Made by a program: the position numbers and the translations under genes
Shown: piece after piece, positions 272 to 29,710 of the stretch
Layout of the letters: each line of letters opens with the position of its first letter
Position numbering within the stretch: the stretch's first letter is position 1
Notes under the pieces: generated by a model
Seen by the model: the letters and a program-made list of their open reading frames with translations, nothing else
The model's database searches: none
Told to the model about the DNA's origin: nothing
Virus record (IMG/VR): IMGVR_UViG_3300023179_000326
Span: 1-32,332 of that record
Direction: 5' to 3' (one strand)
DNA length: 32,332 nucleotides
Source: a virus

Positions 272-279
272 TATTTATA
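272..279 (-). promoter_or_regulatory. T4-type late promoter
   Basis: An exact TATAAATA octamer on the minus strand, 5 nt (TCTAT) before the ATG of the 61-residue gene. With the T4 late-promoter geometry, in which the octamer's last base lies near -6, transcription would start at or next to the A of the ATG. Confidence 0.7.
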
Positions 280-3113: not shown

Positions 3114-3845
3114 TTAATTCATTAATGCGGATACTACTAGTTTAATAGAAGAATTAGTTTGTTGTATATCAAATAGTACTATATTCATAGATGTATTGAT
3201 GTTGGCATTAATACTGCTAAACTTCATAGAAGAAATTATTCTGAATACCTCAAAATTCAACGGCATGGGTGTACTAATTGCATTACCATCATAATCATCA
3301 GCAATATTCATTCCGTAAGAGTCAATGTTGGCACGACTCATGTCAGTCAGGTCACCTCTTACTACATTCTTGTTTGTTGATAGATAAATTTTATTAGAAT
3401 CTGTAGTAATAGTACTGCCCTTAATCAAGCTTGATATGGATGTGTTTTTAATTGAGAACTTTCCATCAAATTTAATAGTTTTTAATTTTTCAAAATTAAG
3501 ACGGGGTAGAGAAATGATGCCATCATCGTACAGGTGTATTTTAAATCGAGTTTCATTAGAGCTATAACCTAGGAAATTACTGCTAACATCAAATTTAATT
3601 TCTGTATCATTTAAACAAGATAATACTCTAACAAGTTTCTTAAGATCAGGTATGTTTAATGTTTTAGTTACATTAATTGCTGCGTCGTTGTATTGCGAGT
3701 GAGCTATTATAGTGTTGTCACTTGTAGCAATAGTGGTAGCAATTGTTCCGTTGTCGCATTTAAGTACTGCATTGTCAGATATTTTACTCAGCGGAACTAG
3801 AAACTCATTAAGCAGTAATTCTCTATTAGTAATACTGAGTTCCAT
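3114..3845 (-). CDS. 45: DNA polymerase sliding clamp, gp45-like
   Basis: A 243-residue protein with the two-domain beta/alpha pattern of a trimeric PCNA-like clamp, close to T4 gp45 (228 aa). The clamp encircles DNA, tethers gp43 polymerase, and in T4 also activates late transcription through gp55 and gp33. The internal repeat is visible as two similar halves, each with alternating strands. IPDLKKLVRVLSCLNDTEIKF in the first half matches the clamp strand-helix signature. Assignment rests on this pattern and on the position beside gp32; identity is low. The start is supported by a full consensus promoter ending 5 nt before the ATG. Confidence 0.75.
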   Translation of the reverse strand: MELSITNRELLLNEFLVPLSKISDNAVLKCDNGTIATTIATSDNTIIAHSQYNDAAINVTKTLNIPDLKKLVRVLSCLNDTEIKFDVSSNFLGYSSNETRFKIHLYDDGIISLPRLNFEKLKTIKFDGKFSIKNTSISSLIKGSTITTDSNKIYLSTNKNVVRGDLTDMSRANIDSYGMNIADDYDGNAISTPMPLNFEVFRIISSMKFSSINANINTSMNIVLFDIQQTNSSIKLVVSALMN

Positions 3846-3850
3846 AATGT

Positions 3851-3878
3851 ATTATAACTAAAATATATTAATTGTCAA
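3851..3878 (-). promoter_or_regulatory. Consensus sigma70-type promoter of the sliding clamp gene
   Basis: TTGACA (3878-3873), 16 nt spacer, TATAAT (3856-3851), then only ACATT before the ATG. Both hexamers are perfect. The predicted start of transcription falls on or within 1-2 nt of the ATG, so the mRNA would be leaderless. The promoter is embedded in the end of the gene at 3868-4263. Confidence 0.8.
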
Positions 3879-4265: not shown

Positions 4266-5117
4266 TCAGAGATCTTTTAGCAGTTCAGCTAAAGTCTCAT
4301 CTGAATCAGCACTAGCTTGCTTCGCTGCGGGCTTTGCAGCAACGTTGCTGGCTACTGCTTCTTTAACACTAGACTCAGCCTTTGTCTCTTCATCAGCATC
4401 CTCTGTGCAATGATAATGTTTAGCTAGCAGGTCTTGAATTTCTTCGTAGCTCTTAGAGGTGACATACTTTTCAAGATCGAACGCTGCATCATATATCTTC
4501 TTGTAATCTGCTGCAGCAAGACCTTCAATTTCCTTAGGTGTACCAAACTTTGAGGAAACGTATGTCGGATAATCTCCTTGCTTTTCAACTTTGATCTTCA
4601 AGCTGCATCCTTTGCCGGAAAGATCAAAAATGCGAGCTCCAAGTTCAGTAGCCTCTTCACCTTCAATGGCATCCATGATAATCTTGTATAGCTGTCTACC
4701 AAATCTCAAGATCTTAACTTTGCCATTGTTGTCTGCATTAACTGGATCGTTAATAACGTACACATTAACAAGCCAATTCTCGCGACGCTTCAATGCTAAA
4801 GCCTTTTCCTTTTCCTTTTCAGTACCGGTCTTCAATGTCTTGTATCGATACTCTGCAATAGGATCACGCTGGTTCCAAGTCGTGGGACTAACAACTGTGA
4901 CAAGCTGGCCAGTAGAAAAACTATTCCAGCCATAATTGTATGTATGGAAAAATGTCTTGGTGGGGTCTTTGACATTGGGTAGCAAGCGAACAGTGTAAGT
5001 ATTGCCTACTTCAGTCTTAAGAAAATCTTTGTACTTGCTGTTAGCAGAACCTTCGCCTGTATTCTTGGTTAAAGCGCCTTTGATACTCTCAAACATTGCA
5101 TTGGTAAATGTACTCAT
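4266..5117 (-). CDS. 32: Single-stranded DNA-binding protein, gp32-like
   Basis: A 283-residue homologue of T4 gp32 (301 aa). It coats single strands during replication, recombination and repair. The order matches the family: a short basic N-terminal cooperativity arm, an OB-fold core with LKRRENWLVNVYVINDP and NNGKVKILRFGRQLYKII (the T4 core equivalent is clear), and an Ala/Lys linker leading to an acidic tail (DSDETLAELLKDL) that recruits partner proteins in T4. The T4 zinc site (His64, Cys77, Cys87, Cys90) is not conserved: the aligned CPVC region is DPIA here and no cysteine pair is present. It heads the operon that continues into the 131-aa gene. Confidence 0.9.
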   Translation of the reverse strand: MSTFTNAMFESIKGALTKNTGEGSANSKYKDFLKTEVGNTYTVRLLPNVKDPTKTFFHTYNYGWNSFSTGQLVTVVSPTTWNQRDPIAEYRYKTLKTGTEKEKEKALALKRRENWLVNVYVINDPVNADNNGKVKILRFGRQLYKIIMDAIEGEEATELGARIFDLSGKGCSLKIKVEKQGDYPTYVSSKFGTPKEIEGLAAADYKKIYDAAFDLEKYVTSKSYEEIQDLLAKHYHCTEDADEETKAESSVKEAVASNVAAKPAAKQASADSDETLAELLKDL

Positions 5118-5123
5118 ATTGAT

Positions 5124-5151
5124 ATAATAAATGTATATTTGATTTAATCAA
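5124..5151 (-). promoter_or_regulatory. Sigma70-like promoter of gp32
   Basis: TTGATT (5151-5146), 16 nt spacer, TATTAT (5129-5124), then ATCAAT and the ATG. The same hexamers and spacer recur in front of the uvsY-like gene. The predicted leader is 0-2 nt. Confidence 0.55.
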
Positions 5152-5473
5152 CAGGTTTTTTTTGTTCTAACCTACTATTTTTTTGGCTAAGTAAGTTGTA
5201 AGCCTTAATAGCTTTTAAAGACGTAAAGTATTTTAAATCATAATAAGTTTCATCTTTATAAAGCTTGTATGGAGCTGAGAAGAATTCTTCTACATCTATG
5301 CTGTTATGATTTTTAAAAAACGTGGCAAGCCTCTTGAGACAAGCAACAGTAATATCATCCAAATTACTAAAGTCTTTTCTTAACCGGTATGGCTTGTTAG
5401 CAGACGTTCTAGCAGTTTTAAGAAAAGTATTGTAGATGTGTTTCTCGAAATCCGAAATCAATAGTACTTCCAT
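5144..5473 (-). CDS. Conserved-looking phage protein upstream of gp32 (109 aa)
   Basis: A 109-residue, Lys/Tyr-rich, probably helical protein with a recognisable ordered pattern: FEKHIYNTFLKTAR, then KPYRLRKDFSNL, then FFSAPYKLYKDE and a C-terminal KAIKAYNLL. The arrangement resembles a small family of marine T4-like phages, but I know no function. It overlaps the bS21-like gene by 16 nt and ends just before the gp32 promoter. It might be a replication accessory by position only; it does not resemble helicase loader gp59 and is half its size. Confidence 0.65.
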   Translation of the reverse strand: MEVLLISDFEKHIYNTFLKTARTSANKPYRLRKDFSNLDDITVACLKRLATFFKNHNSIDVEEFFSAPYKLYKDETYYDLKYFTSLKAIKAYNLLSQKNSRLEQKKPVD

Positions 5474-5667
5474 TTTTTATGTTGCAACTGTTTTTTGAGC
5501 TTGCGAAGCTGGCTCGGCTTGAGAAATCTGCTTTTGAGTCTCAGTTCTTCTAAAACTTCTGAACGCTGAACCTCGTTCATAAATTTTTTAACCATTTTAT
5601 CAAAATACACTTTATCGGTGCACTTTTTCTTGTCTAGCTTTACGCATGCGTTTACAATGTAGCTCAT
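5458..5667 (-). CDS. rpsU: bS21-like ribosomal protein
   Basis: A 69-residue, very basic protein with the layout of bacterial ribosomal protein bS21 (E. coli 71 aa). A helix FDKMVKKFMNEVQRS corresponds to the bS21 first helix. It is followed by the family's central VLEELRLKSRFLKPSQLRK, matching the VL-x-E-x-R...F-x-KP...R pattern, then a Lys-rich helix ending KKWKYY. bS21 sits beside the anti-Shine-Dalgarno of 16S rRNA on the 30S subunit, and phage copies are known in marine phages. It overlaps its upstream neighbour by 4 nt and its downstream neighbour by 16 nt, in the operon between gp41 and gp32, so it would be made early with replication proteins. It may replace or compete with host bS21. 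Confidence 0.75.
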   Translation of the reverse strand: MSYIVNACVKLDKKKCTDKVYFDKMVKKFMNEVQRSEVLEELRLKSRFLKPSQLRKLKKQLQHKKWKYY

Positions 5668-5989: not shown

Positions 5990-7312
5990 TTAGATAGACA
6001 AATTGGTTAATGTGCTAATAGATGATGATGCTGCTTCTGTATCATTCAAGTGTTCATCTTCAAATATGGTGAGAGTCGAGTAATCAATTCTCATGATACA
6101 ATGGCCGAAATTAGGTCCAAATCGATTTTTCATGAGTCCCATTTTAATAACACCTAATTCTTTGTCTGTATCTTCTTGCCAAATACTCATAATAACGTCT
6201 CCAGTCATTGCCAAGCCAATACTTTCAGATATAGTTTTCAATCCAGGATCAGTAATAGAATAACCTTCTCGGTTTAACTGTGTAGCAGATATAATTGGGC
6301 AGTTGAAGGTGTATGACAGGGCTCTTAATTGTTCTGTGCAGCTTTTGATTCTTTCATAAGATGAATCACCTTGAGTGCTGTTCAAAAGATTAACATAATC
6401 TAAAACAATTGCGTCAATTTTAACACCTTTTTGAATAAGTTTTTTAACAAAAGCCTTTAAATGGTTGCATGTAATTGTTGCAGGTGGAAATTCTTTAATA
6501 ATAATTTTAGCGCCAGGCGATTCATTAGCATACTGTTCAATTTGTTGCTTTAAATTGTCACAGTCTATCTTGAGCTGACTCAGAGGTATCTTTGATACAT
6601 TAGCACACAATCTTTTAGCATAAATCAATTCTGGCATTTCGAGTGAAACAAGTAATACATTTTTACCTTGACTTGCTATATTAATAGCAACATTGCCTAA
6701 GAAAATGCTCTTACCAATGTTGGTTTCACCGGCAAACAAATAAAGCGATTTTCCTTGCTCCAAGAATCCACCGCCTATTTTATCATCTAACCACTTCCAT
6801 TTTGAAGGTATGTATTTTTCTGTAGAGTTGATACTATCAATAACTTTGTCTATGTCTTTGAAAAAATCTAATCCTGTTTCCGTAACAAGTGAGATGGAAC
6901 ACGCTTTTTCAAATTTTTCTAATATTTTAGATGTATCAACAATATTTTTACCTATGTCTTCTACTGTGTCCATCATTGCATAGTAAACTGCTTTTTCTTT
7001 TAAAAACGTTTCTGTATTATGATAGAGCTCATCTTCATTCAAGTTTTTATCTATACCTTGCAAAGATGTGACAACATTCTTTAAAGCATTGCGTTGATTG
7101 TCATCAGTTAAATATGCCTTAATTTCAGTGATGGTTGGTTTAGTGCCTCGTTTTTCAAAAAAGTTTTTTATGATAATAAACACATCTTTAATATCTTTGT
7201 TTTTGAAGTAGATAGGGTTGACTGCATCAATAATTGATGCTAAATAAGTTTCATCTGTTAAAGCTTTGTAAGCGATAATGTTTTCGAAATAATCTAAATC
7301 TAGCTTTGACAT
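5990..7312 (-). CDS. 41: Replicative DNA helicase, gp41-like (DnaB family)
   Basis: A 440-residue homologue of T4 gp41 (475 aa), the hexameric 5'-3' helicase that unwinds the fork and recruits primase. An N-terminal helical domain (about 1-150) is followed by a RecA-like core. This has Walker A GETNIGKS (195-202), the DnaB motif SLEMPELIYAKRL, Walker B with IVLDYVNLL, motif CPIISATQLNREG, and arginine-finger-region MKNRFGPN near the C-terminus. The primase (gp61) is not in the window. A near-consensus promoter lies directly upstream. Confidence 0.9.
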   Translation of the reverse strand: MSKLDLDYFENIIAYKALTDETYLASIIDAVNPIYFKNKDIKDVFIIIKNFFEKRGTKPTITEIKAYLTDDNQRNALKNVVTSLQGIDKNLNEDELYHNTETFLKEKAVYYAMMDTVEDIGKNIVDTSKILEKFEKACSISLVTETGLDFFKDIDKVIDSINSTEKYIPSKWKWLDDKIGGGFLEQGKSLYLFAGETNIGKSIFLGNVAINIASQGKNVLLVSLEMPELIYAKRLCANVSKIPLSQLKIDCDNLKQQIEQYANESPGAKIIIKEFPPATITCNHLKAFVKKLIQKGVKIDAIVLDYVNLLNSTQGDSSYERIKSCTEQLRALSYTFNCPIISATQLNREGYSITDPGLKTISESIGLAMTGDVIMSIWQEDTDKELGVIKMGLMKNRFGPNFGHCIMRIDYSTLTIFEDEHLNDTEAASSSISTLTNLSI

Positions 7313-7321
7313 TTAACCCTT

Positions 7322-7350
7322 ATTATATAATACACCAGCTTCAATTGCAA
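7322..7350 (-). promoter_or_regulatory. Sigma70-like promoter of gp41
   Basis: TTGCAA (7350-7345), 17 nt spacer, TATAAT (7327-7322), then 9 nt to the ATG. The predicted leader is only 2-3 nt, so the AAGGG in the gap would probably not be part of the mRNA. It overlaps the end of the glycosyltransferase gene. Confidence 0.65.
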
Positions 7351-8689: not shown

Positions 8690-8695
8690 ATATAG

Positions 8696-8701
8696 AATAT
8701 A
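8696..8701 (-). promoter_or_regulatory. Probable -10 box of the amidotransferase gene
   Basis: TATATT, then 6 nt and the ATG that encodes MCGIFG. No good -35 was found at 16-18 nt. It is listed because its spacing matches the other -10 boxes in the window. Confidence 0.35.
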
Positions 8702-8707
8702 TTGTAG

Positions 8708-8715
8708 TATAAATA
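8708..8715 (+). promoter_or_regulatory. T4-type late promoter
   Basis: An exact TATAAATA on the plus strand, 14 nt before the ATG at 8730, giving a predicted leader of about 9 nt. A second, 7/8 match (AATAAATA, 8715-8722) lies closer. The divergent amidotransferase starts only 40 nt away on the other strand. Confidence 0.6.
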
Positions 8716-8729
8716 ATAAATATTTCAAG

Positions 8730-9617
8730 ATGAATAAAGATTCAAAGCTCATATACGAACGTTATTTGCAGCATAAAAACAATGTTTTGCTTGAATATCC
8801 TATAGGTATGACTGGTGATATTGATGTTGAACCAGTAACAAAGAAAACTTTGCCAGGTCAAGGTAAAAAATATGGTGCAGGTGCAATAGCTATTGTAGCG
8901 CAACAAACAGGTGCCACAGAAGAAGATGTTGCAAGAGACATGGCGAGAACAATTTTAGATAATGTAGCTGAACGCAAGAAAGTTGGTGAAAAAGAGATAT
9001 TTTATTATCCTGGTGATCCAAAAACGTTCATTAATGAAATGGTTCCTATTTTTGTTCAAAAATATGGTGTGCCTGCTTCACAAGCTGGTTTTACTATCAA
9101 TTACATTTTAATATATCTTTTAAAGGCTGACAAAACTACCGGCGGTTTAAAGAAGTCCGGCGAACAACGTAAAGCAGAACGCGTACAAAAAATTAAAGCA
9201 GCTAAAACCAAGCCAGTAACAGTGTATGAGGTTAACAAAGCAGTTAAACTCAAAGACCCTGCACTTAACATAATTAAAAACGGGTTACCAGAAGAAGATG
9301 TACCTGAAAAAGAAATTTTGTCGGTAATTAAACAGGTAGCAGTTGAATACAACGATACCCCAGGATTAGACAAGTCCAAAATGCTTAAAATTAGCCCTAC
9401 AAAAGTGTTTGATTCTCTGGAACAAGCTGGTGTTTTAACTGCTAAAGAAGTTGCTCCTCAAGCTGAACCTGAAGCCGGCGTTGGAACCGGTGAAGTTGCA
9501 ACACCTGATGAAGAATTGCTGAGTGATTTGTCTGATGATAGAGAGTTTATTAACAAATACATTGATTTTCACGAGATGCCTGGCGATAAAGAATATATTA
9601 CTGATTACGGCAACTAA
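8730..9617 (+). CDS. Late protein of unknown function (295 aa)
   Basis: Unrecognised, 295 residues, Lys/Glu/Ala-rich. It begins MNKDSKLIYERYLQHKNN, an amphipathic helix like the leading helices of other late proteins here (28446, 29716, 31759). The middle (about 60-150) is helical with a PGDPKTFINEMVPIF motif. An acidic, probably disordered segment (about 245-275) precedes the C-terminus. An in-frame ATG at 8667 was rejected because it would run through the divergent amidotransferase start and the late promoter. A late promoter suggests a virion or assembly protein. It ends in a 20-nt tail-to-tail overlap with queC. Confidence 0.65.
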   Translation: MNKDSKLIYERYLQHKNNVLLEYPIGMTGDIDVEPVTKKTLPGQGKKYGAGAIAIVAQQTGATEEDVARDMARTILDNVAERKKVGEKEIFYYPGDPKTFINEMVPIFVQKYGVPASQAGFTINYILIYLLKADKTTGGLKKSGEQRKAERVQKIKAAKTKPVTVYEVNKAVKLKDPALNIIKNGLPEEDVPEKEILSVIKQVAVEYNDTPGLDKSKMLKISPTKVFDSLEQAGVLTAKEVAPQAEPEAGVGTGEVATPDEELLSDLSDDREFINKYIDFHEMPGDKEYITDYGN

Positions 9618-10356
9618 TCTGTTTGCACTTAAACTTAGCCCAAGGTATATTAATTTTATAGGGTAGTGGGTCTATGTATCCTGCATCGATAAATCCTTTT
9701 ATTCTCAAAGAGCAGGCAGTACATTCTCCGCAAGCTTGCTCTGCGCCCTCGTAACAAGTCCATGTTTGATTAAAGTTTACACCGTAATTGATACCTAATT
9801 TTACAATTTCTGCTTTTGATTTGTCAATAAGAGGAGCTAGTACTTTGATCTTGTTGCGTCGGTTTAACTCGCTTACTTTATTAATTTGAGTTAAAAATTC
9901 AGGGCTGCCATCCCAAAACCCTGCAACACTGTCGGCTTGTGCAGCCCCATGATAAACTGCACTTGCACCATAATTCTCTGCAATAGCTAGTGATATGCTT
10001 AGTAGCATCAAATTTCGATACGGCACATAATTTACAGTCTGAGGGTCACCCATAACATCTTTTGCCTTAGCAACTGCAATCTGGTTGTTAAGAAGTGAAG
10101 AAACTTGACAAATATCTTTAAAGAACGGCAATTTTATGTGTAAACTATCAACAGGTGAATCAACAGATTCAATCTGAAATGACGCGCAATTTATTTCTTT
10201 GTCACGGTGTTTTTGCCCGTAATCGTAATTAACAGTAATAATTCTATCATACCTACTTGCAGCTAAATGCAACAAGACAGTACTGTCCATTCCCCCAGAA
10301 ATGGGGACTACAGCTTTACTCGACGGGCTCTTCTTCGTTTTGCGCTTCATTTGCAT
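9598..10356 (-). CDS. queC: 7-cyano-7-deazaguanine synthase (QueC)
   Basis: A 252-residue QueC, the ATP-dependent enzyme that turns 7-carboxy-7-deazaguanine plus ammonia into preQ0. The PP-loop SGGMDS is at residues 20-25. NYDYGQKHRDKE matches the family's tyrosine/His region and VPYRNLMLLS follows. TWTCYEG and the C-terminal zinc motif CGECTACSLR give the four cysteines (Cys...CxxCxxC). In phages QueC usually serves DNA protection by 7-deazaguanine modification, but FolE, QueD, QueE and the DNA-inserting DpdA are not in this window. The first 41 nt overlap the end of uvsX, so it is expressed with the recombinase. Met3 is an alternative start. Confidence 0.92.
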   Translation of the reverse strand: MQMKRKTKKSPSSKAVVPISGGMDSTVLLHLAASRYDRIITVNYDYGQKHRDKEINCASFQIESVDSPVDSLHIKLPFFKDICQVSSLLNNQIAVAKAKDVMGDPQTVNYVPYRNLMLLSISLAIAENYGASAVYHGAAQADSVAGFWDGSPEFLTQINKVSELNRRNKIKVLAPLIDKSKAEIVKLGINYGVNFNQTWTCYEGAEQACGECTACSLRIKGFIDAGYIDPLPYKINIPWAKFKCKQISCRNQ

Positions 10357-11434: not shown

Positions 11435-11440
11435 AGTCCT

Positions 11441-11468
11441 AGTATACTTGAATTGATGAGGAATTCAA
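11441..11468 (-). promoter_or_regulatory. Sigma70-like promoter of uvsX
   Basis: TTGAAT (11468-11463), 16 nt spacer, TATACT (11446-11441), then AGGACT and the ATG. The predicted leader is 0-2 nt, so the AGGA next to the ATG is too close and probably untranscribed as a Shine-Dalgarno. Confidence 0.5.
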
Positions 11469-11471
11469 CAA

Positions 11472-11837
11472 TTATTCTTTATCGTCAAAAAGCTTGACAA
11501 CCTTTTCCTTGGGCTGTGAAGCAGGAACAGCTGCAGAAAACAATTTATGATACTGATCAATGAGACGAGCATCATTGTCTACATCTTCACCAAGTACAAT
11601 ATTAGAAGCGTTAAACTTCCAAACAGTACCGTTAGCTCTGGACTTTTCACCGATGAACTCTCTGAAGTAAAGTGGGATGGTCTGAACATTAAGTTGACCT
11701 TGTTGAGTGGGCTGCACATGGATAATTGCAGGGTTTTTTACTGTTAAATAGCTGGTGTCGCTCTTAACAAGCTCTCCAATAATGGTGCGGCCAATGTGGT
11801 CAATAAATGTTACTACTGTAGATTCTTTCTTGCTCAT
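11472..11837 (-). CDS. Conserved-looking small protein upstream of uvsX (121 aa)
   Basis: A 121-residue, beta-rich protein. An N-terminal strand series (VVTFIDHIGRTIIGELVKSD, then YLTVKNPAIIHVQP) resembles a small barrel of the Sm/SH3 type, followed by LNVQTIPLYFREFI and a tail ending EKVVKLFDDKE. I do not know a function. The Sm-like reading is a weak inference from strand pattern. It lies 37 nt upstream of uvsX on the same strand and has its own -10 box, divergent from the large plus-strand block. Confidence 0.6.
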   Translation of the reverse strand: MSKKESTVVTFIDHIGRTIIGELVKSDTSYLTVKNPAIIHVQPTQQGQLNVQTIPLYFREFIGEKSRANGTVWKFNASNIVLGEDVDNDARLIDQYHKLFSAAVPASQPKEKVVKLFDDKE

Positions 11838-11845
11838 ATCTATAT

Positions 11846-11851
11846 GTTATA
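11846..11851 (-). promoter_or_regulatory. Probable -10 box of the 121-aa gene
   Basis: TATAAC with 8 nt to the ATG. The -35 is poor (TTGCAA at 14 nt). Confidence 0.35.
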
Positions 11852-11883
11852 CATACGTATCGATATTGCAACATGTAAAATTA

Positions 11884-11891
11884 AATAAATA
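11884..11891 (+). promoter_or_regulatory. Late promoter (7 of 8 match)
   Basis: AATAAATA ending 4 nt before the ATG at 11896. It would give a leaderless mRNA for the large Thr/Pro-rich protein. Confidence 0.5.
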
Positions 11892-11895
11892 ATAT

Positions 11896-14800
11896 ATGGC
11901 CTACAGGTATAATCAGCCGCATTACCGTAAAGCTTCTAATCCTAAAATTCCTAATTTTAGAGAGATTGACAGGCAAAAGAGGCAGAACTGGGGTATTGTA
12001 AAAAATGTAAACTCTTATCTAGCAAGTATTGATGGGCATGCAGTTCTGAAAAACTTGCTTCCACAGGTTGATTTACCAGAAGATTACACAGTTTCACCAG
12101 AAACAGAAGAGCGTAACGGTGGTCCTCTCACCATGATTGTTAGAGGTGTTGCTTCTTTTTATGTGCACCCTCTAGGGTCAGAATTCACACTAAAATTAGG
12201 TTATTTGCATGCATACACGTTAAGATTGCGCGTTGTAATGAATCCAGTAGATGTTGCTTATCCTTACATAGCTGTAACACTTGCGGATGGCAGTACTGAT
12301 GTGATAAAAGAAGGTGAAACTTTACCAATACAAATAACTGGTACCTCAGATGTGTATTTGGTGAAATATGTTTTGAATACAGGTGGTTTGAGTGTTGTTA
12401 CTGTACGTGAAAGCAATCAACCAGAGCCAATCTTGCCTCCTATAGAAGGTAGATTTTTTGTAACTTCAACGCCTTCACAAACACCAACATTAACCCCCAC
12501 AGAAACATTTCATGTCACACGCACAGTTACTGTCACACAAACTGTTACTTTATCTTATTCAAGAACGCCTACCGGTACACCGCCTCCACCACCTTCACCT
12601 ACACCAACAACAACATTTACAATTACGCCTACATTGACACGCACAGTTACTAGAACAGCTACACCCACGCAAACACGGACCCCTACCTACACACCTACTA
12701 ATACTCAGACTGTAACACCTACAAACACTTTCACTCAAACAGAAACTTCTACTCAAACTCCTACACCGACCCCTACACAAACAGTTACTCCAACAAACAC
12801 TGAAACGCCCACTTTAACGCCTACAGAAACGGTGACAGCTACTGTAACAGATACACCGACTCCGACACCCACGCAAACCGTTACACCTAGTAAAACCCCT
12901 ACTCAAACACCTACACCAACAGTGACAAGCACGCAAACTGTGACACCGTCTCCTACAAGTTTGTATGTGATTTTAGGTGATGGTGCATCAAGTTACGGTA
13001 CAACATGGGTGTCTGGAAGTAATTTTGGTAGCGGCATGGGTGCATGGAACATATATGGTGCATCAAATACTGGTGCATTTATTGCTAATGCATCTAATTC
13101 TGGTTATTTAAACACATTAGCTTTGGGTACTGCTGCATGGGGGTTGTCAGGCGCAGGTGCTGGTAATTATATTAACGCAGAAAGAACTTTGCTAACGGCT
13201 TTAACAGCGGGCGAAACGTTTTACATTGAGCTGGGCGCCTGGTTTACTAATGGTAACAAAGGTATAGATCTTTACTCTGGCGCCTCTTTTAATAACAATG
13301 ACAAACTTATTAATTTTAACATAGGTGCTGGTAGTTATTTTGTAGGGTCTACAGCTCTTAACTTTGGTTACCAAGGCAATTCGACATTTAAGCTGTATGC
13401 AGTTCAAAAAGAAGAATCATTAATGTTGTATGTTTCTAGAGGTAATCAGTTGTCTTCTTTTGATTTACCGGCATCCGTAAACGGAAGCGCCAAATTATCA
13501 AGATTTAAATTGTATTGTGGGGAAACAGATAACGATCAAATACAAAATGCATTGTTAGCTAACAACATTGAGATTTACAGAGATCGGCTAATTCCAACCC
13601 TAACACCAACGCCTACTAACACAAACACACCTACACCAACGCCTACTAACACAAACACATCTACACCTACAAATACAACCACACCAACGCTTACGCGTAC
13701 TGTTACACCTTCTAATACCCCAACAATTTCACTTACAACAACAGAACAATATTTTGTTCAAGGTGATGTTGCAAGTAATTATGGTGGTGTCTGGAACAAT
13801 GGTGACAATTATGGAACTGGTTTGAATGCATGGAACTTGTATACTCAGGGCAGTTCTTCTGGGTACAAGATAGTAAACCCGCAAGACTTGCAATACACTG
13901 GTTTAGGTACTGCTGCATGGTGCATGAGTGGGTTCAACGGTCAATATGTTAATGGTGAACGCACTTTAAAGCTTCCTCTTATTACTGGAGAACGTTTTGA
14001 AATAGACTTGAGTGTGTGGTTCACTAACGGCAATAAAGGCATAGATTTGTATGCTAACGGTTTCAGTGGTAATGACAAATTAATTACATTCAATGTGGGT
14101 GGGGGTACATATTATGTTGGTAATACTGCATTGGAAATTTTTGAATATCAAGAAAAATCTACATTTAAAATAATTGCAGTTCAACAAGACACTTCATTGT
14201 TATTAACTGTGTCCCGTGGCAATAAATTGTCTGCTTTTACAATACCAGCTGCTAATAATGGCAGTGCTGCATTAGACCGTTTCAAATTGTATTGTGGTGG
14301 TACAGACAATAATGCACGAGAAAATGTACTGTTAGCTAATAATATCGCTGTGTATGTTGATAAATTACGGCCTACACCAACTTACACCCCTACCGGCACT
14401 CCGCCGCCTACACCTACTAATACTAAGCCTACACCTACACCTACACAGACTTCTACTAATACCCCTACCATCTCTTTGACACGTACAGTTACAAGAACAG
14501 CTACACCAGCAATTGTTGATGTTCAAGATGAAGCTAAGAACTATCGTACACCCACACCTACACCTACGCGTACTGCAACAGTGGCTTTTGTTAATGTTCA
14601 GGATGAAGCTAAAAATTATCTTACACCAACACCTACTTTGACTAATACACCGGTAACTCCGACGCCCACAGTTACACCCACTTTGACTCAAACTAATACT
14701 ACAACCCCAACACTGACTTATACTGTCATGACTCCAACACCAACACTGCCTCAAGCAGTGTATATAGATACGTTGGAATATTTTCTTTTAGTCCCTGGTT

Positions 14801-15867
14801 TGTTTAACGGTAAAGTGCAGTATAATTCCCCAACGACTAATCGTTGGATAAGATGGAACAGTGCGCTTTCCATATGGGAATGCTTGAATGCTGATCTTAT
14901 TACTAGGCGTACTTACAGTACTTCTATATTAACCGTTGAAATTTTTGATGGGTCACAACCTTGGCATTATAGTTGGATTAGTATACAATGTTACCCAGGA
15001 TACGGTCCTTTTTGGGCTACAACACCTACACCTACTAATACACCGACAACATCTGTTACGAGAACACCGACTCCCACAAGCACGCCTACCTTGACACGCA
15101 CACCTGGGCTGCCAGAAGCAAGAGGCTTGAGACTTCGTGAAGTATTCCTGCCCGCCACTGAAAATATATATCTCTTTCAAGAAGATGTAACTACGCTTAT
15201 CAACGGGCGACCTATTTGGAAGCATAATGCATCACCTGCATTGTTTCAGATGTATTGGCGGGCAGTGAGTGGGCCGAGCGGCCAATGGGTATTACAGAGA
15301 CTTTCTCCATTAGTTGCAATTGCAGATACTAACATGCCGTTTACTCCTGGGTTAGTGGATCCTTGGCAATTTGCTTGGGTTACTACAAATTATGATGCTA
15401 CACTCCCTCCTAACTTGAGACAGGTTTTAGAAGGGTACGGGTCAATATTGCCTATCCCTACAACAACACCGACTGTGACAAGAACATTGACTTCTACACT
15501 GACATTGACTCCTACTGTAACTTTGACTCAATCTGTCACATTAACGCCTACACCTACAATTAATGCCGTTAACAATGCTTATTGTGTGAGCGGTATAACA
15601 ACAAAGCCAGAGTTGAATGGTACATATTATAAAAATTCCGGAACATATTATGATTTACGGTTTACAAAGATTAATAATGATGGCAGCAGATACAGTATTA
15701 TTATGCCTCCACCATATGATGCATGGTACATTCAAAATGCTGATACTGGTGAAAATTATTACACAAGCAACAATTTAGTCATTGGTAACAATGCATTAGT
15801 ACCAGCTGCCGGTTGGATGCCCAAGAACAGTGGTGAAACAGTCACAGTTACTGCAGGTACTTGCTAG
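11896..15867 (+). CDS. Large Thr/Pro-rich modular protein, probable fibre or adhesin (1323 aa)
   Basis: A mosaic of globular domains joined by long TPTPT/TQTVTPT linkers. The N-terminal domain (about 1-185) begins [13 protein letters not shown] and is probably the anchor. Linker 1 covers about 190-355. Two copies of a beta-rich domain of about 210 residues follow (about 356-566 and 614-825). They share [28 protein letters not shown]-x-TDN and LLANNI, a jelly-roll or lectin-like pattern. Then come two NxxQDEAKNY motifs within linkers (about 875 and 900), a Trp-rich segment (about 953-1042), another beta domain (about 1072-1185) and a C-terminal domain with [19 protein letters not shown]. No signal peptide or membrane segment is present. 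A late promoter precedes it. A receptor-binding or decoration role is inferred. Confidence 0.75.
12961..13590 (+). repeat. Duplicated beta domain, copy 1 (within the 1323-aa gene)
   Basis: The first copy of a duplicated domain of about 210 residues. It shares with copy 2 the ordered motifs [38 protein letters not shown] and RFKLYCG. DNA identity has drifted (for example aatggtaacaaaggt against aacggcaataaaggc), so the duplication is old and maintained at protein level. Confidence 0.75.
13603..13662 (+). repeat. 30-bp direct tandem repeat, two units
   Basis: Two adjacent 30-bp units (13603-13632 and 13633-13662) differing at a single base near the end. They encode [10 protein letters not shown] and [10 protein letters not shown] in the linker between the two beta domains. 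The near identity contrasts with the varied codons of the rest of the linkers and points to recent slippage. Confidence 0.8.
13736..14370 (+). repeat. Duplicated beta domain, copy 2 (within the 1323-aa gene)
   Basis: The second copy of the domain described at 12961-13590, with the same motif order ([35 protein letters not shown]). Confidence 0.75.
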
Positions 15868-15906
15868 TAAAACACACTTAAAAATTTACTAAATATTGTA
15901 TATACT

Positions 15907-18036
15907 ATGGCTCTGCCCAATCCTAATGATTTAACCAGAAGAAAGCGTGTAGCTGCTTATGAGCGACTGACTTATCAACAGTTTTTAGGTCGCAAATCAG
16001 GTGGTGGTACATACAGCCCTGCTTCTGAAAATGTATTGCCAATAGTAGCTTTGACACCTACAGCATCTGTCACACCAACTCCTACAGCTATTCCTACAAT
16101 CAATTTAACTCCAGAAAACAGCGTCATAACTGTAACTACAACTACAAACATCATAGTTGATACAGATGTTACAGATTTTACTGTGCGGTTTAGCGACACA
16201 CAATTTGTGGTGTTTACTAACAATTTTGATGTTAATAATTATTACAATTGTAAGATTACAGCATCTACAGTTAACAATGTATCTGTAGGTAAAAACCCTA
16301 TTTACGTAGAGGACAGCGGTATATTAACATCTTCTACAAATGAATTCATAACCATGTATTATGCTACAACTGGTTCTTTGATTTTGCTTGCAGCATTGAG
16401 TCAAACTGCACCAACACCTACAATAACAAGAACACCTACAGCAACACCCACACCTACTAAGACTGTTACTGCAACATCTACTGCCACAGCGACCATGACG
16501 CAAACGCCGACTGTTACACCAACTTTAACGCAAACAGCTACACCTACTCAAACTGTAACATGTACTCAAACCGCAACTGGTGAGCCTACTTCTACACCTA
16601 CAAGTACATCCACGTCAACACCGACTGTTACACCAACTTTAACAACTACTAGCACGCCGAACCCCACTGCAACACCTACACAAACTGTGACTCCTACTAA
16701 TACAGTTACGTTTACTGCAACATCTAAGGAAACAGCCACACCCACGCCTACTGAATCTGTTACAGCTACACCTACTCAAACTGTACAGATAATCTTGGAT
16801 GAAACACCGACTCCGACTCCGACTAAAACACCGACTAACACTCCAACATTAACTCCGTCAGTCACTCTTACTATTTCTTCTACACCTACAGATACTCCTA
16901 CTAATACCCCTACAGTTTCTAATACTTTAACGCCGGGTGCAACAAACACTTATACACCAGTTGCAACACAAACATCGACTGGTGCAATTTTAAATGGTTC
17001 TGACGAATCTAAGAACTATCGTACCCCTACCCCCACACCCACTATTACACCGACAATTACTATTACGAATACGCCAGAATTAATTAACAATTTGTTTACC
17101 TGCTCAAAAAATGTAGATACTGCTGAATGTTCAGCTATAAGCTTGAATAGTTCAGGTTGGACATTAGGTTCATATCAAACACGTGTAGAAAAAGTATTAG
17201 CACCTGATAACACATTAACTGCAGTGGCATACGAGTCACTTGCTAATAGTAATAGCTTTGTTTCACAAGGTTTTTCAAATTTTTGGCAGCCATTCACCAC
17301 TTATACAATTTCAATATGGGCTAAATTAATAAGCGGTGACGCTTCAATCGGTCAGATAATAAACGTTACGCGCAATTCAACAGATGATCGGGTGTTTCTC
17401 AATGTAAATGGTAATCTTACATCACAGTGGCAGAAATTTACTTTAACATTTACCACCGGTGGCTCATTTATCGGTAATTTTAAAACTGTGTTTTTCTGTG
17501 CAGATACACCAGCGGGGTGCCGGGTTGCATTGTGGGGTGCTGAGCTTTATTCCCCTGCTTTTCCAAGCCCTACAGCAACACCTACAATTTCAGTTACACG
17601 TTCTGTAACACCTACTGGTACACCGCCGCCAACATCTTCAGTGACACCCGGTATAACACCTACATTAACATACACAACTTCTAATGCAAATACATTGAAC
17701 ATAACAGTAGGTACTGGCGTGATAGAGCTTGATGTAACTAACAATGGATTTACTTATGATATTTCACAGTTTGGTACAAACAATCCAGAGCTAACATGTT
17801 ATCGTGATACAAATTATGATTTTATTATTAAAACAGCAAGTCATCCATTTGCTCTTAGAAACAGTTCATTACTTACCACAGCAGTACCTGGCACATACAA
17901 CAACAATCCTACATCAGGAAATGGATTAGGCAGTATAGTGATGTTTACTCCTAATAGCTCAACCCCCAATGAAATAATATATCAATGTACATTTCATCCT
18001 GCAATGAGTGGCAGAATAATTATTAAAGACTATTAA
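15907..18036 (+). CDS. Thr/Pro-rich modular protein with C-terminal cupredoxin-like domain (709 aa)
   Basis: A second modular protein of the same style. An N-terminal basic segment (MALPNPNDLTRRKR) leads to a small beta domain (about 70-160), then a long TPT linker (about 165-385) containing [12 protein letters not shown], the same motif as in the larger protein. A beta-sandwich of about 150 residues follows, with YTISIWAKLISGD and WQKFTLTFTTGG, resembling a carbohydrate-binding module. After another linker comes a cupredoxin-like domain (about 594-709). This has the four potential type 1 copper ligands: His646 (SHPF), and Cys694, His697 and Met700 in CTFHPAM. It lies 39 nt after the larger gene and is probably co-expressed. 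A virion fibre role is inferred. Confidence 0.75.
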   Translation: MALPNPNDLTRRKRVAAYERLTYQQFLGRKSGGGTYSPASENVLPIVALTPTASVTPTPTAIPTINLTPENSVITVTTTTNIIVDTDVTDFTVRFSDTQFVVFTNNFDVNNYYNCKITASTVNNVSVGKNPIYVEDSGILTSSTNEFITMYYATTGSLILLAALSQTAPTPTITRTPTATPTPTKTVTATSTATATMTQTPTVTPTLTQTATPTQTVTCTQTATGEPTSTPTSTSTSTPTVTPTLTTTSTPNPTATPTQTVTPTNTVTFTATSKETATPTPTESVTATPTQTVQIILDETPTPTPTKTPTNTPTLTPSVTLTISSTPTDTPTNTPTVSNTLTPGATNTYTPVATQTSTGAILNGSDESKNYRTPTPTPTITPTITITNTPELINNLFTCSKNVDTAECSAISLNSSGWTLGSYQTRVEKVLAPDNTLTAVAYESLANSNSFVSQGFSNFWQPFTTYTISIWAKLISGDASIGQIINVTRNSTDDRVFLNVNGNLTSQWQKFTLTFTTGGSFIGNFKTVFFCADTPAGCRVALWGAELYSPAFPSPTATPTISVTRSVTPTGTPPPTSSVTPGITPTLTYTTSNANTLNITVGTGVIELDVTNNGFTYDISQFGTNNPELTCYRDTNYDFIIKTASHPFALRNSSLLTTAVPGTYNNNPTSGNGLGSIVMFTPNSSTPNEIIYQCTFHPAMSGRIIIKDY

Positions 18037-18037
18037 T

Positions 18038-19297
18038 ATGAACCCCGTTACAACAGCATTAGAATTAATAGAAAGTATCATGAATGATAATTCCATCTCA
18101 TGGAAAGACAATTCAATGTATTTGACCTATGGTCCTAAAAAAGTTAATGGTGTGGAAACTGATGATTACAGCATAATATTTCATGTTAAAGATAAAAAGC
18201 CATTAAATGAATTATTGCCTGAGCAAATAATACCTTCTAGTTTTACAATAGATGATTTTGATGTTATATCTGATGTGCAAATAGGTGAGTTATGTAGTTT
18301 TTATCCTGCAGATTGTCATGATAGAACAACTTTTAATGCAGAGCCTGTTGCAACGAACAGAAGACGTACAAGACCGCTCAAAGGCGGTTCAAGCAGCATC
18401 AATTCATATGAAGGGGGGTATGTTGCTACATTAGGTTTGCTTGCTAGAGACAAATCTGATGGTCAGATTGTGGCGGTGTCCAACAATCATGTGTTTGCTG
18501 GGTCTACATTGCATCCTAGCTATCAATCTACTTTTTCCAACGTTCTGCCTTTATGCGCTATTCAACCAGCATACGAAAATGCATCATACAGAACTAATAA
18601 TGATTATATTGGTACTGTGAAAAAATTTGTACCGGTGGGCGATGTTGATTACACAAAATCTACATTAGCGGGTAACCCGCATCTGCAATATACATCATGT
18701 GATAGTGCTGTTGTTTCATTAACATCTTATGGTATTATAGATTCAAGTAGCGCGGGCATTGTTGGTTTTGACCCCGCTCCTCCGTACCCGTTTGCTACAG
18801 ATGCAGAGATTAATTCACTTTTAAACACTGGTTCTGTTAATTATGCTGCTCCTGTGTTTCGTTCTGGCAGAACATGCGGGCCAGTTGGATATCCAGGCAA
18901 CACATATTCATGTAGTTTAAGTGTATATCAGTTTGGTACGGCGTGGGTAGGTTTATACAGTGGTCACACTTCTTACTTCATAGATTCGATTTACTTGAGA
19001 GGTAATGTAACATCTGGTAGAGGCGGAGATTCAGGGTCACCAGTGCTTGCTCTAATAAACGGTACCTGGAAAGTAATAGGGCTGTTTTTTGCGGGTCCAG
19101 GAGATGTTTCTTACGGTATTGCTTGTAGAATCACTTCTGTGGCATCAAAATTAAACTTAACACATTGGGATACAAAAATGCCTACTGTGTCAGCAGTTTA
19201 CAAATTGCAGAATATTAATGCATTAGATTACGGTACAGCAAATGATGCATCTTATGTCACATTATCTGGTAGAAAATACTTTTTTGTGGCGAGATAA
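18038..19297 (+). CDS. Trypsin-fold serine protease (419 aa)
   Basis: A chymotrypsin/trypsin-fold serine protease. The catalytic triad is readable: His151 in SNNHVFAG, Asp222 in CDSAVV, and Ser332 in GRGGDSGSPV. RSGRTCGPVG (about 276-284) matches the family's KSGRTTG-like segment. An N-terminal domain of about 110 residues precedes the protease. RRRTRPLKGG (about 108-117) is a plausible basic processing or linker site. No signal peptide is visible, so it is probably carried in the virion or acts in the lysing cell. It starts 1 nt after the cupredoxin-like protein stops, so it is translationally coupled. Possible jobs are fibre maturation or host-surface digestion. The stop abuts the stop of gp43 on the other strand without a gap. 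Confidence 0.88.
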   Translation: MNPVTTALELIESIMNDNSISWKDNSMYLTYGPKKVNGVETDDYSIIFHVKDKKPLNELLPEQIIPSSFTIDDFDVISDVQIGELCSFYPADCHDRTTFNAEPVATNRRRTRPLKGGSSSINSYEGGYVATLGLLARDKSDGQIVAVSNNHVFAGSTLHPSYQSTFSNVLPLCAIQPAYENASYRTNNDYIGTVKKFVPVGDVDYTKSTLAGNPHLQYTSCDSAVVSLTSYGIIDSSSAGIVGFDPAPPYPFATDAEINSLLNTGSVNYAAPVFRSGRTCGPVGYPGNTYSCSLSVYQFGTAWVGLYSGHTSYFIDSIYLRGNVTSGRGGDSGSPVLALINGTWKVIGLFFAGPGDVSYGIACRITSVASKLNLTHWDTKMPTVSAVYKLQNINALDYGTANDASYVTLSGRKYFFVAR

Positions 19298-21889: not shown

Positions 21890-21895
21890 AAAACA

Positions 21896-21901
21896 ATTAT
21901 A
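21896..21901 (-). promoter_or_regulatory. -10 box of gp43
   Basis: TATAAT followed by TGTTTT and the GTG start. The -35 region is poor. It fits the window-wide pattern of -10 boxes 5-9 nt from the start codon. Confidence 0.5.
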
Positions 21902-23137: not shown

Positions 23138-23144
23138 CGTATTA

Positions 23145-23150
23145 ATTATA
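23145..23150 (-). promoter_or_regulatory. -10 box of the GT-B glycosyltransferase
   Basis: TATAAT overlapping the stop of gp46, with 7 nt to the ATG. No good -35 was found. Confidence 0.45.
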
Positions 23151-26003: not shown

Positions 26004-26609
26004 TTATTCTCCTGTGGAGTTGTAATTGTCGTCTGTAGGCTCAGTGTATATGTGTGCGTTTTCACCAACAATATCAGGATTAAGCATTAAATCTGTGTAC
26101 ACTTTTTCTTTGTATTCAGTAATGCAGGTGTGGTGTTTCTTCTCTTTTTTGATCCTGTTAATAAAAGCATGAAAAGCAATTGTTGTGAAGTATGAAAACG
26201 GGCTAAAACCTGAATCAAGCTTAAACTTTTTATTTCTTAAAGCTGAGAACATTTTTACAATAGCATCGCCAATCATGTCATCTTTGTATGAATAATTGAT
26301 GAAGTTTGGTGCGTAAGATAGACCGTGTGCAATCTTGGTTATACTTTCACCTAGCTTCACAGACACATCTCCGGTCTTGTAGTATGCACGTATTTCTTCT
26401 TCAAACTCACGGCTGTTAACATAATGTAATTTTTCTTTAGGTTTGAGTTTGCGTGGGGCGGCATCTGCAGCTGCAGCAGCTGAATCTAAAATAGGTAATA
26501 TTTCTTTGATGGCTTTTGTTGCATCAACATCTTCAATATCTTCTGCTGGCTTAGTAGCTTTACGCTTGGGTAATTTTTTTAGAGCTTGTTTGGATGTTTT
26601 CTTTTTCAT
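26004..26609 (-). CDS. 55: Late-transcription sigma factor gp55
   Basis: A 201-residue homologue of T4 gp55 (185 aa), the sigma-like factor that directs host RNA polymerase to TATAAATA promoters. The N-terminal 55 residues are Lys/Ala-rich and not conserved. The sigma region 2-like core (about 75-160) has YVNSREFEEEI, then YAPNFINYSYKDDMIGDAIVKM and GFSPFSYFTTIAFHAFINRIK. Its targets are visible in this window as late promoters at 272, 8708, 28711 and 29703. The first 50 nt overlap the end of uvsW. Its 3' end carries the AGGAG that serves gp47. Confidence 0.94.
   Translation of the reverse strand: MKKKTSKQALKKLPKRKATKPAEDIEDVDATKAIKEILPILDSAAAAADAAPRKLKPKEKLHYVNSREFEEEIRAYYKTGDVSVKLGESITKIAHGLSYAPNFINYSYKDDMIGDAIVKMFSALRNKKFKLDSGFSPFSYFTTIAFHAFINRIKKEKKHHTCITEYKEKVYTDLMLNPDIVGENAHIYTEPTDDNYNSTGE
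26009..26013 (-). promoter_or_regulatory. Shine-Dalgarno for gp47 inside the end of gp55
   Basis: AGGAG followed by an 8-nt spacer (AATAATCT) and an ATT codon at 26000. It is one of the few strong Shine-Dalgarno sites in the window and decides the gp47 start. Confidence 0.6.
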
Positions 26610-28409: not shown

Positions 28410-28411
28410 AA

Positions 28412-28419
28412 AATAAATA
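28412..28419 (+). promoter_or_regulatory. Possible late promoter (7 of 8) for the 81-aa gene
   Basis: AATAAATA on the plus strand, 26 nt before the ATG at 28446. It would give a leader of about 21 nt. It overlaps the minus-strand uvsY promoter. Confidence 0.35.
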
Positions 28420-28444
28420 ATAGTATACATTGTAAGAAAATCAA
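28417..28444 (-). promoter_or_regulatory. Sigma70-like promoter of the uvsY-uvsW-gp55-gp47-gp46 operon
   Basis: TTGATT (28444-28439), 16 nt spacer, TATTAT (28422-28417), then 7 nt to the GTG at 28409. The hexamers and spacer are the same as in front of gp32. Confidence 0.55.
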
Positions 28445-28445
28445 T

Positions 28446-28723: not shown

Positions 28724-29140
28724 ATGTCAGATACTGGCCATTGGATACTGTCTGAAGGTGTTGTTGTCAATGACACAACTTTTGGCTTTATTTATGAGAT
28801 TACAAATACGGTAACAGGCAGAAAATATATAGGTAAAAAACAATGCAAACGCAAATTAAAGAGACAGCCTTTAAAGGGCAAGAAAAACAAACGAATTGAA
28901 GAAAAAGAATCTGATTGGAAAGAGTATACTAGTTCGTCTACAGAATTAAATGATGATATAAAAAGGCTTGGTAAAGATAAATTTATTTTTAAAATTTTGC
29001 ACACATGTGCCTCAAAATGGGAGCTTGCTTACCGGGAAATCAAGGAACAGCTAGATAGAGAAGTACTTTTAAAACCTGAATATTACAACGGTATAATCAA
29101 TGTACGAATTGGGCGGCCTCCTAAGAACTTCTTGACTTAA
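28724..29140 (+). CDS. GIY-YIG nuclease-like protein
   Basis: A 138-residue protein with a GIY-YIG fold. GFIYEITN (21-28) and KYIGKKQ (34-40) make the two strands with the YIG triplet, and basic residues follow where the catalytic arginine lies. YTSSSTELNDDIKRLGKDKFIFKIL matches the family's later helix-strand pattern, and LAYREIKEQL carries a candidate metal-binding Glu. It is too small to contain a separate DNA-recognition domain, unlike most homing endonucleases. T4-like phages carry related Seg-type enzymes. The late promoter at its start is unusual for a homing enzyme and may mean a packaging or genome-maintenance role. Confidence 0.72.
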   Translation: MSDTGHWILSEGVVVNDTTFGFIYEITNTVTGRKYIGKKQCKRKLKRQPLKGKKNKRIEEKESDWKEYTSSSTELNDDIKRLGKDKFIFKILHTCASKWELAYREIKEQLDREVLLKPEYYNGIINVRIGRPPKNFLT

Positions 29141-29165
29141 ACATAATTTCATTTAAACTCATGTT

Positions 29166-29702: not shown

Positions 29703-29710
29703 TATAAATA
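29703..29710 (+). promoter_or_regulatory. T4-type late promoter
   Basis: An exact TATAAATA followed by CTTTA and the ATG at 29716. TATAAATACT matches the T4 late consensus well beyond the octamer. With T4 geometry the start of transcription is the A of the ATG. Confidence 0.75.

What the first reader, a model, noticed from the sequence alone, without database searches (positions are those of the whole stretch)
3844..3878. Replication-gene promoters sit 5-9 nt from start codons: leaderless or nearly leaderless early mRNAs
In front of gp45 there is a perfect TTGACA-N16-TATAAT only 5 nt from the ATG, so +1 falls on the start codon. The same geometry recurs at gp32 (TATTAT, 6 nt), gp41 (TTGCAA-N17-TATAAT, 9 nt), uvsX (TATACT, 6 nt), gp43 (TATAAT, 6 nt to GTG), the GT-B gene (TATAAT, 7 nt), the amidotransferase (TATATT, 6 nt), the gene at 11472 (TATAAC, 8 nt) and uvsY (TTGATT-N16-TATTAT, 7 nt to GTG). 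Shine-Dalgarno sites are mostly absent. T4 itself uses ordinary leaders, so a phage-wide short-leader design would be unusual and would imply a host, or a phage-modified ribosome, that initiates well on leaderless mRNA.
Basis: partly seen in the sequence, partly recalled or inferred. Interest (0 to 1): 0.75.

Follow-up and report, generated by a model that had tools for sequence, protein, structure and literature searches.

The report
T4-like phages with leaderless mRNAs
A family of freshwater T4-like bacterial viruses places its promoters almost exactly six bases before the start codon and has no ribosome-binding sites, so most of its messages should begin at the start codon itself, a design known for one hot-spring phage but, as far as I could find, not for the T4 group.

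Summary
Observation confirmed and extended. Relatives in viral contigs keep the geometry TTGATT-N16-TATAAT-N6-ATG while flanking sequence turns over. Bipartite promoters 4-9 nt from the start occur in 29 of 35 non-redundant gp32 upstreams (0.5 expected), 22/31 for uvsX and 38/41 for gene 11472; for gp43, 17/17 have a -10 at 6-9 nt. T4-type late promoters (ATAAATA) also sit 5-6 nt from ATG, so this is not only an early-gene trait. In four long relative contigs 26-42% of unit-leading genes carry one of the two geometries, against 0-12% in T4, P-HM1, Melnitz and HTVC008M. Shine-Dalgarno sites are near background. The base before ATG tends to be a pyrimidine, as expected if transcription starts at the A.

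Best explanation: leaderless or near-leaderless mRNAs across the phage. No 5' end has been mapped and the host is unknown. Thermus phage phiYS40 is the closest precedent; HTVC008M has eight late genes of this kind. The window also encodes a bS21 ribosomal protein, so a phage-altered ribosome is possible but untested.

The parts
3844..3878 (-). Promoter of the sliding clamp (gp45-like): TTGACA 3873-3878, N16, TATAAT 3851-3856, 5 nt, ATG at 3845
   Evidence: 21 of 28 non-redundant relatives keep a bipartite promoter at 4-9 nt, 0.4 expected
3114..3845 (-). Sliding clamp (gp45-like), leaderless by prediction
   Evidence: AlphaFold2 pLDDT 93; Foldseek PCNA E 8e-14, TM about 0.74; no Pfam or PHROG match
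5118..5151 (-). Promoter of gp32: TTGATT 5146-5151, N16, TATTAT 5124-5129, 6 nt, ATG at 5117
   Evidence: 29 of 35 relatives, 0.5 expected; gp32 = phrog_224
5458..5667 (-). Phage-encoded ribosomal protein bS21, inside the operon between gp41 and gp32; candidate factor acting on initiation
   Evidence: PF01165 32 bits, cut-off 27; 27 loci of the window and its relatives carry it; profile matches bS21 of solved ribosomes, E 7e-7
7313..7350 (-). Promoter of gp41: TTGCAA 7345-7350, N17, TATAAT 7322-7327, 9 nt, ATG at 7312
   Evidence: 16 of 40 relatives, 0.4 expected
8690..8701 (-). -10 of the amidotransferase: TATATT 8696-8701, 6 nt, ATG at 8689 (MCGIFG start)
   Evidence: relative G001 has a sigma70-type promoter at the same place before MCGIFG
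8715..8722 (+). T4-late-type box AATAAATA, 7 nt before ATG at 8730; shares a 40-bp divergent intergenic region with the amidotransferase promoter
   Evidence: relatives keep AATAAATAATTCAAG-ATG
11435..11468 (-). Promoter of uvsX: TTGAAT 11463-11468, N16, TATACT 11441-11446, 6 nt, ATG at 11434
   Evidence: 22 of 31 relatives, 0.65 expected
11838..11871 (-). Promoter of gene 11472-11837: TTGCAA 11866-11871, N16, TAACAT 11844-11849, 6 nt, ATG at 11837 (corrects the 8-nt reading)
   Evidence: Rule-based hit at gap 6; 38 of 41 relatives, 1.2 expected
11884..11891 (+). T4-late-type box AATAAATA, 4 nt before the fibre gene start at 11896
21890..21901 (-). -10 of gp43: TATAAT 21896-21901, 6 nt, GTG at 21889
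   Evidence: 17 of 17 non-redundant sequences (window and relatives) have TATAAT or TATACT at 6-9 nt, 13 of them at 6
23138..23150 (-). -10 of the GT-B-like gene: TATAAT 23145-23150, 7 nt, ATG at 23137; no good -35
   Evidence: 12 of 36 relatives bipartite, 0.3 expected
26004..26609 (-). Late sigma factor gp55, expected to read the ATAAATA boxes
   Evidence: phrog_234 E 5e-26
28410..28444 (-). Promoter of uvsY: TTGATT 28439-28444, N16, TATTAT 28417-28422, 7 nt, GTG at 28409
   Evidence: 9 of 16 relatives, 0.2 expected
29132..29165 (+).
   Evidence: Read; rule-based hit
29703..29710 (+). T4-late box TATAAATA, 5 nt before ATG at 29716
272..279 (-). T4-late box TATAAATA, 5 nt before ATG at 266

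Best explanation
This is a T4-like phage lineage, sampled largely from freshwater, in which transcription units are built to give leaderless (0-3 nt leader) mRNAs. Host RNA polymerase reads TTGATT-N16-TATAAT promoters whose -10 ends about 6 nt before the ATG, so +1 is the A of the start codon. At late times gp55-programmed polymerase (with the clamp) reads ATAAATA boxes ending about 5 nt before the ATG, with the same result. Ribosomes load directly at the 5'-terminal AUG/GUG without Shine-Dalgarno pairing; downstream genes that overlap their neighbour are translated by coupling. Shown here: the elements, their fixed distance, their conservation, both promoter classes, the lack of Shine-Dalgarno signal. 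Inferred: the start sites, the route of translation, the coupling. The likeliest reason is a host whose ribosomes accept leaderless mRNA well.
For: Positional peaks: TATAAT at 6-8 nt and TTGAT 29-32 nt before ATG in 637 upstreams of 34 gene clusters, no Shine-Dalgarno peak. Per gene against dinucleotide shuffles: gp32 29/35 vs 0.5, uvsX 22/31 vs 0.65, gene 11472 38/41 vs 1.2, clamp 21/28 vs 0.4; gap mode exactly 6 (95 of 218), spacer mode 16. gp43: 17/17, mostly with GTG starts. The gap-6 peak is present at every distance down to 61-65% uvsX identity. Long contigs: 26-42% of unit-leading genes vs 0-12% in four control T4-likes; overlapping genes only 3-8%; Shine-Dalgarno in leading genes 2-8% vs 26-54%. 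Late boxes peak at 5-6 nt in all four. Base -1 is a pyrimidine in 72% of gap-6 genes vs 46% without promoter, and T in 85% of late gap-5 genes, as for an initiator at the A. Positive control phiYS40: 12 hits at 5-9 nt vs 0-5 in the 5-nt bins at 10-49 nt. Independent criterion: TA-like signals about 12 bp upstream mark leaderless genes in bacteria (PMC3160421).
Against: No 5' end is mapped. Readthrough from upstream promoters could give leadered copies of the same genes. 58-74% of leading genes in the contigs show neither motif at 4-9 nt, partly because starts were called naively. Some discriminators are purine-rich (AGGACT, AAGGGTTAA in the window; AGGAGT in G008), though too close to the ATG for ordinary Shine-Dalgarno spacing. 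The host, and how well it translates leaderless mRNA, is unknown. Loci share descent, so counts overstate independence.
Confidence: 0.85

Rival explanations
1. Compaction only: promoters lie near the ATG because intergenic space is minimal and Shine-Dalgarno sites are not needed in this host (as in Bacteroidota). Translation is by ordinary SD-independent 30S initiation; mRNAs are short-leadered without any functional need for the A to be +1.
For: Very short divergent spacers (36, 40 and 58 bp); the -35 of gp32 overlaps the end of the upstream gene; no SD peak.
Against: The gap is sharply peaked at 6 rather than spread, the -1 base shows an initiator preference, and late boxes of a different sigma factor converge on the same start point. 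The -10 hexamers are TATAAT-like, not the TAnnTTTG that Bacteroidota use (general knowledge), which argues against that host.
Confidence: 0.2
2. The phage-encoded bS21 replaces host bS21 and shifts ribosomes towards leaderless phage mRNAs: a phage-altered ribosome.
For: bS21 lies in the early operon between gp41 and gp32 in the window; 27 loci carry it and 11 of 16 long relative contigs have one. Virus bS21 enters E. coli ribosomes and strongly lowers their activity (PMC6375957). bS21 alters SD use in F. johnsoniae (PMC9976891). A KW(K/R) C-terminal motif is almost invariant here.
Against: HTVC008M and Melnitz encode bS21 yet use Shine-Dalgarno sites. Early genes must be translated before much phage bS21 exists. 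No evidence links this bS21 to leaderless initiation; no IF3 gene was found.
Confidence: 0.2
3. Wrong start codons: the true starts lie downstream, so the mRNAs have normal leaders.
For: Starts are not experimentally known; gp43 and uvsY need GTG starts.
Against: N-termini are conserved from the first codons in uvsX, gp32 and gp41; in codons 2-6 third positions vary more than second positions in all five genes tested.
Confidence: 0.04
4. Chance in AT-rich intergenic DNA.
For: Upstream regions are 27-30% GC, so TATAAT-like hexamers are common.
Against: Shuffles give 0.4 against 8 observed in the window. Control phages with upstream regions of 30-33% GC lack the peak. The -35 and spacing are conserved too.
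Confidence: 0.01

Closest known systems
Thermus phage phiYS40 (middle/late transcripts reported mostly leaderless)
   Same: Large lytic phage; -10 elements about 6 nt from many starts in my re-scan; leaderless middle/late mRNAs reported (PMC3594737).
   Different: Not T4-like in its replication genes (its DNA polymerase is type A, PMC9324360 abstract), and no gp55-type late promoters are known to me in it. It keeps Shine-Dalgarno sites in 36% of genes (12% control). Its mRNA starts are experimental; here they are not.
Pelagibacter phage HTVC008M (T4-like)
   Same: Nearest named T4-like by gp43 (30%); encodes bS21; eight late-type boxes exactly 5 nt before ATG.
   Different: Otherwise Shine-Dalgarno-led (about 45-48%), with other late boxes 18-30 nt away followed by an SD; no sigma70 peak near the ATG.
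Leaderless genes with ORF-adjacent -10 (Deinococcus-Thermus, Actinobacteria)
   Same: TANNNT box with first T about 12 bp before the start and no SD (PMC3160421, PMC12340547).
   Different: Cellular genomes; in Deinococcus mostly without a -35. Here a clear -35 TTGATT is present.
T4 and cyanomyoviruses (P-HM1)
   Same: Same replication and recombination genes and a gp55 late sigma factor.
   Different: Leadered and SD-led; no promoter peak at 4-9 nt.
bS21-encoding phages
   Same: PF01165 homologue in an aquatic phage.
   Different: The freshwater clades of PMC9723584 carry bS21 beside structural genes and are predicted to infect Bacteroidota; here it lies among early replication genes.

Membership tests
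Leaderless genes of bacterial type (TA-led) | TANNNT/-10 box with first T about 12 bp upstream of the start | tested here: met
   Gap mode 6, so first T at -12
Leaderless genes of bacterial type (TA-led) | No Shine-Dalgarno signal before these starts | tested here: met
   2-8% in leading genes, near the background windows
Leaderless genes of bacterial type (TA-led) | Transcription start at the start codon | not testable with these tools
   No transcript data; indirect support from the -1 pyrimidine
T4-like phages | T4 core genes gp32, gp41, gp43, gp46, gp47, uvsW, uvsX, uvsY, gp55 and a sliding clamp | tested here: met
T4-like phages | TATAAATA late promoters | tested here: met
   ATAAATA 4-9 nt before 18-25 genes per long contig
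T4-like phages | SD-led, leadered mRNAs as in the T4-likes checked (a habit of relatives, not a strict definition) | tested here: not met
   against controls
phiYS40-type leaderless expression | Leaderless geometry for late genes | tested here: met
   in silico only
phiYS40-type leaderless expression | Part of the genes still SD-led (36% of phiYS40 genes) | tested here: not met
   Here the sigma70-type units also lack SD
phiYS40-type leaderless expression | Shift in host IF2/IF3 during infection | not testable with these tools
   Only shown: no IF3_C match in 16 relative contigs
bS21-encoding phages | PF01165 domain over the curated cut-off | tested here: met
   32 bits, cut-off 27

The most novel reading that the evidence does not exclude
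A lytic T4-like lineage has given up Shine-Dalgarno initiation in all its transcription units, and its early bS21 makes host ribosomes favour 5'-terminal AUG, so that leaderless mRNA acts as the phage's translational identity tag.
Probability: 0.18. Interest if true: 0.87.

Novelty: new variant of a known kind. Interest (0 to 1): 0.63.

Why it matters
Leaderless initiation is usually treated as a minor route in phages (lambda cI, P2), with phiYS40 as the exception. A widespread freshwater T4-like family with both promoter classes fused to the start codon gives a natural, genome-scale system for asking how ribosomes choose leaderless messages and what phage bS21 does. It also has a practical consequence: gene finders and late-promoter searches that expect leaders or Shine-Dalgarno sites may misplace starts. 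The pelagimyophage survey reports that its late-promoter prediction was unsuccessful (PMC7029224), whereas HTVC008M clearly has such boxes 5 nt from ATG.

Tried and rejected
Host identification failed. Two genome-contig scans (uvsX, bS21) found no relative; no whiB, psbA or IF3 in 16 relative contigs. These absences are weak evidence against actinobacterial or cyanobacterial hosts. The phage tRNA-Met genes looked like possible initiators but read, by eye, as elongator/Ile2 type. No near DNA match in the phage collection; no Rfam or tRNA hit in the window. A simple -10 weight matrix on naively called starts gave a weak, uneven signal; requiring a -35 or using orthologous starts made it sharp. 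Foldseek on the bS21 model gave no significant hit, so that assignment rests on sequence profiles. Papers: none of the library searches returned a description of phage-wide leaderless design in T4-likes, but most subscription journals are not held and the original phiYS40 report was not read.

Full report
What was checked. The window is a 32,332-base virus record carrying T4 core genes: gp32, gp41, uvsX, gp43, gp46, gp47, uvsW and uvsY, gp55, and a sliding clamp recognisable only by predicted fold. It has no near DNA relative among 50,697 phage records for the 9-kb stretch tested. gp43 is about 30% identical to HTVC008M, Melnitz and cyanophages. uvsX finds 80 loci in viral contigs at 61-99% identity; I recognise several of the sample numbers as lakes, from memory.

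The elements. The gene at 29166 (+) has the same geometry, and T4-late-type ATAAATA boxes lie 4-7 nt before four further starts.

Chance. A fixed rule (TTG-type -35, spacer 15-18, TA---T -10 with at most two mismatches, gap 4-9) hits 8 of 34 window starts; shuffled upstreams give 0.4 on average and never more than 3 in 2000 trials. One hit (start 562) is not kept by relatives.

Conservation. The rule was then applied to relatives, using upstreams that differ at 12 or more of 45 positions. Hits against dinucleotide shuffles: gp32 29/35 (0.5), uvsX 22/31 (0.65), gene 11472 38/41 (1.2), clamp 21/28 (0.4), gp41 16/40 (0.4), uvsY 9/16 (0.2). For gp43, read at its GTG/ATG start, 17 of 17 have TATAAT or TATACT at 6-9 nt. 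The commonest -35 is TTGATT, the commonest spacer 16, the commonest gap 6. Operon-internal genes (gp46, gp47, gp55, uvsW) have none. The peak at 6 persists in the most distant group, 61-65% uvsX identity. Flanking sequence turns over while the boxes stay.

Long contigs. Stretches covering nearly all of four long relative contigs (140-193 kb) show both a TATAAT peak at 6 nt and an ATAAATA peak at 5-6 nt. Of genes that lead a transcription unit, 39, 33, 26 and 42% have one of the two at 4-9 nt; in T4, P-HM1, Melnitz and HTVC008M it is 0, 0, 8 and 12%. Shine-Dalgarno motifs precede 2-8% of leading genes against 26-54% in the controls. Overlapping genes show 3-8% promoters, consistent with translational coupling, which is inference. 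Among the late-type genes one 761-aa protein looks like a tail sheath and others like tail tube proteins, by eye only.

Why leaderless. Sigma70 promoters start about 7 nt after the -10 (general knowledge) and T4 late promoters about one helical turn from the TATA box (PMC2988020). Gaps of 6 and 5 therefore put +1 on the A of ATG. Two sigma factors converging on one point, a pyrimidine at -1 in 72% (gap 6) and T in 85% (late, gap 5) against 46% pyrimidine elsewhere, and coding-type variation in codons 2-6 all fit. Annotated starts of phiYS40, whose middle/late mRNAs are reported leaderless (PMC3594737), give the same kind of peak. The published genomic criterion for bacterial leaderless genes, a TA-like box about 12 bp upstream (PMC3160421), is met.

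Precedent inside the T4 group. HTVC008M has eight genes with ATAAATA exactly 5 nt before ATG and no Shine-Dalgarno site between box and start, while others have the box 18-30 nt away followed by AGGAG-type sites. The window lineage looks like the extreme form of a mixed system already present in a cultured relative.

bS21. Gene 5458-5667 (-) is a bS21 homologue, found in 27 loci including the window and in 11 of 16 long contigs, one of them below the curated cut-off. It sits among early genes, has a near-invariant KW(K/R) C-terminus, and is too distant to place among bacterial bS21s. Phage bS21 can enter ribosomes (PMC6375957) and bS21 affects Shine-Dalgarno use in F. johnsoniae (PMC9976891). 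It is a candidate for a phage-altered ribosome, but HTVC008M and Melnitz carry bS21 without this design, so presence alone explains nothing.

Limits. No 5' ends, no host, naive start calling (first ATG), related loci counted as if independent, and contigs of unknown completeness. The 4-9 nt window was set after reading the finding, but the relatives are independent of the window's own sequence.

Verdict. Novelty is a new variant of a known kind, because phiYS40 and bacterial leaderless genes came first.

Noticed in passing
window 5458-5667 (-): A bS21 ribosomal protein gene with a near-invariant C-terminal KW(K/R) motif in relatives, placed among early replication genes rather than beside structural genes.
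   Followed up: yes
window 8690-8729, 11838-11895, 28410-28445: Divergent gene pairs share intergenic regions of only 40, 58 and 36 bp; in the first two, early and late start-adjacent promoters face opposite ways.
   Followed up: partly
L083, L132 (HTVC008M): Eight genes of this cultured pelagiphage have ATAAATA exactly 5 nt before ATG; others have it 18-30 nt away with a Shine-Dalgarno site. Two late-expression modes in one phage.
   Followed up: partly
window 11896-18036 (+): Two large fibre-like proteins with long TPTPT repeats and duplicated internal domains, followed by a protein with a trypsin-like GGDSGSPV motif (18038-19297), which Pfam does not recognise.
   Followed up: no
window 9598-10332 (-): QueC homologue (PF06508, 189 bits), near an amidotransferase: possible 7-deazaguanine DNA modification.
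   Followed up: no
window 28724-29140 (+): SegE-type GIY-YIG endonuclease (PF19835), a possible homing endonuclease near uvsY; a degenerate late box (ATTAAATA) lies 5 nt before its ATG.
   Followed up: no
L097 283-688 (-): A relative (G001) encodes a tmRNA with an unusually long predicted tag peptide.
   Followed up: no
L105-L107 (G009): A relative at 76% uvsX identity carries 22 tRNA genes, whereas G001, G003 and G008 have one or two.
   Followed up: no
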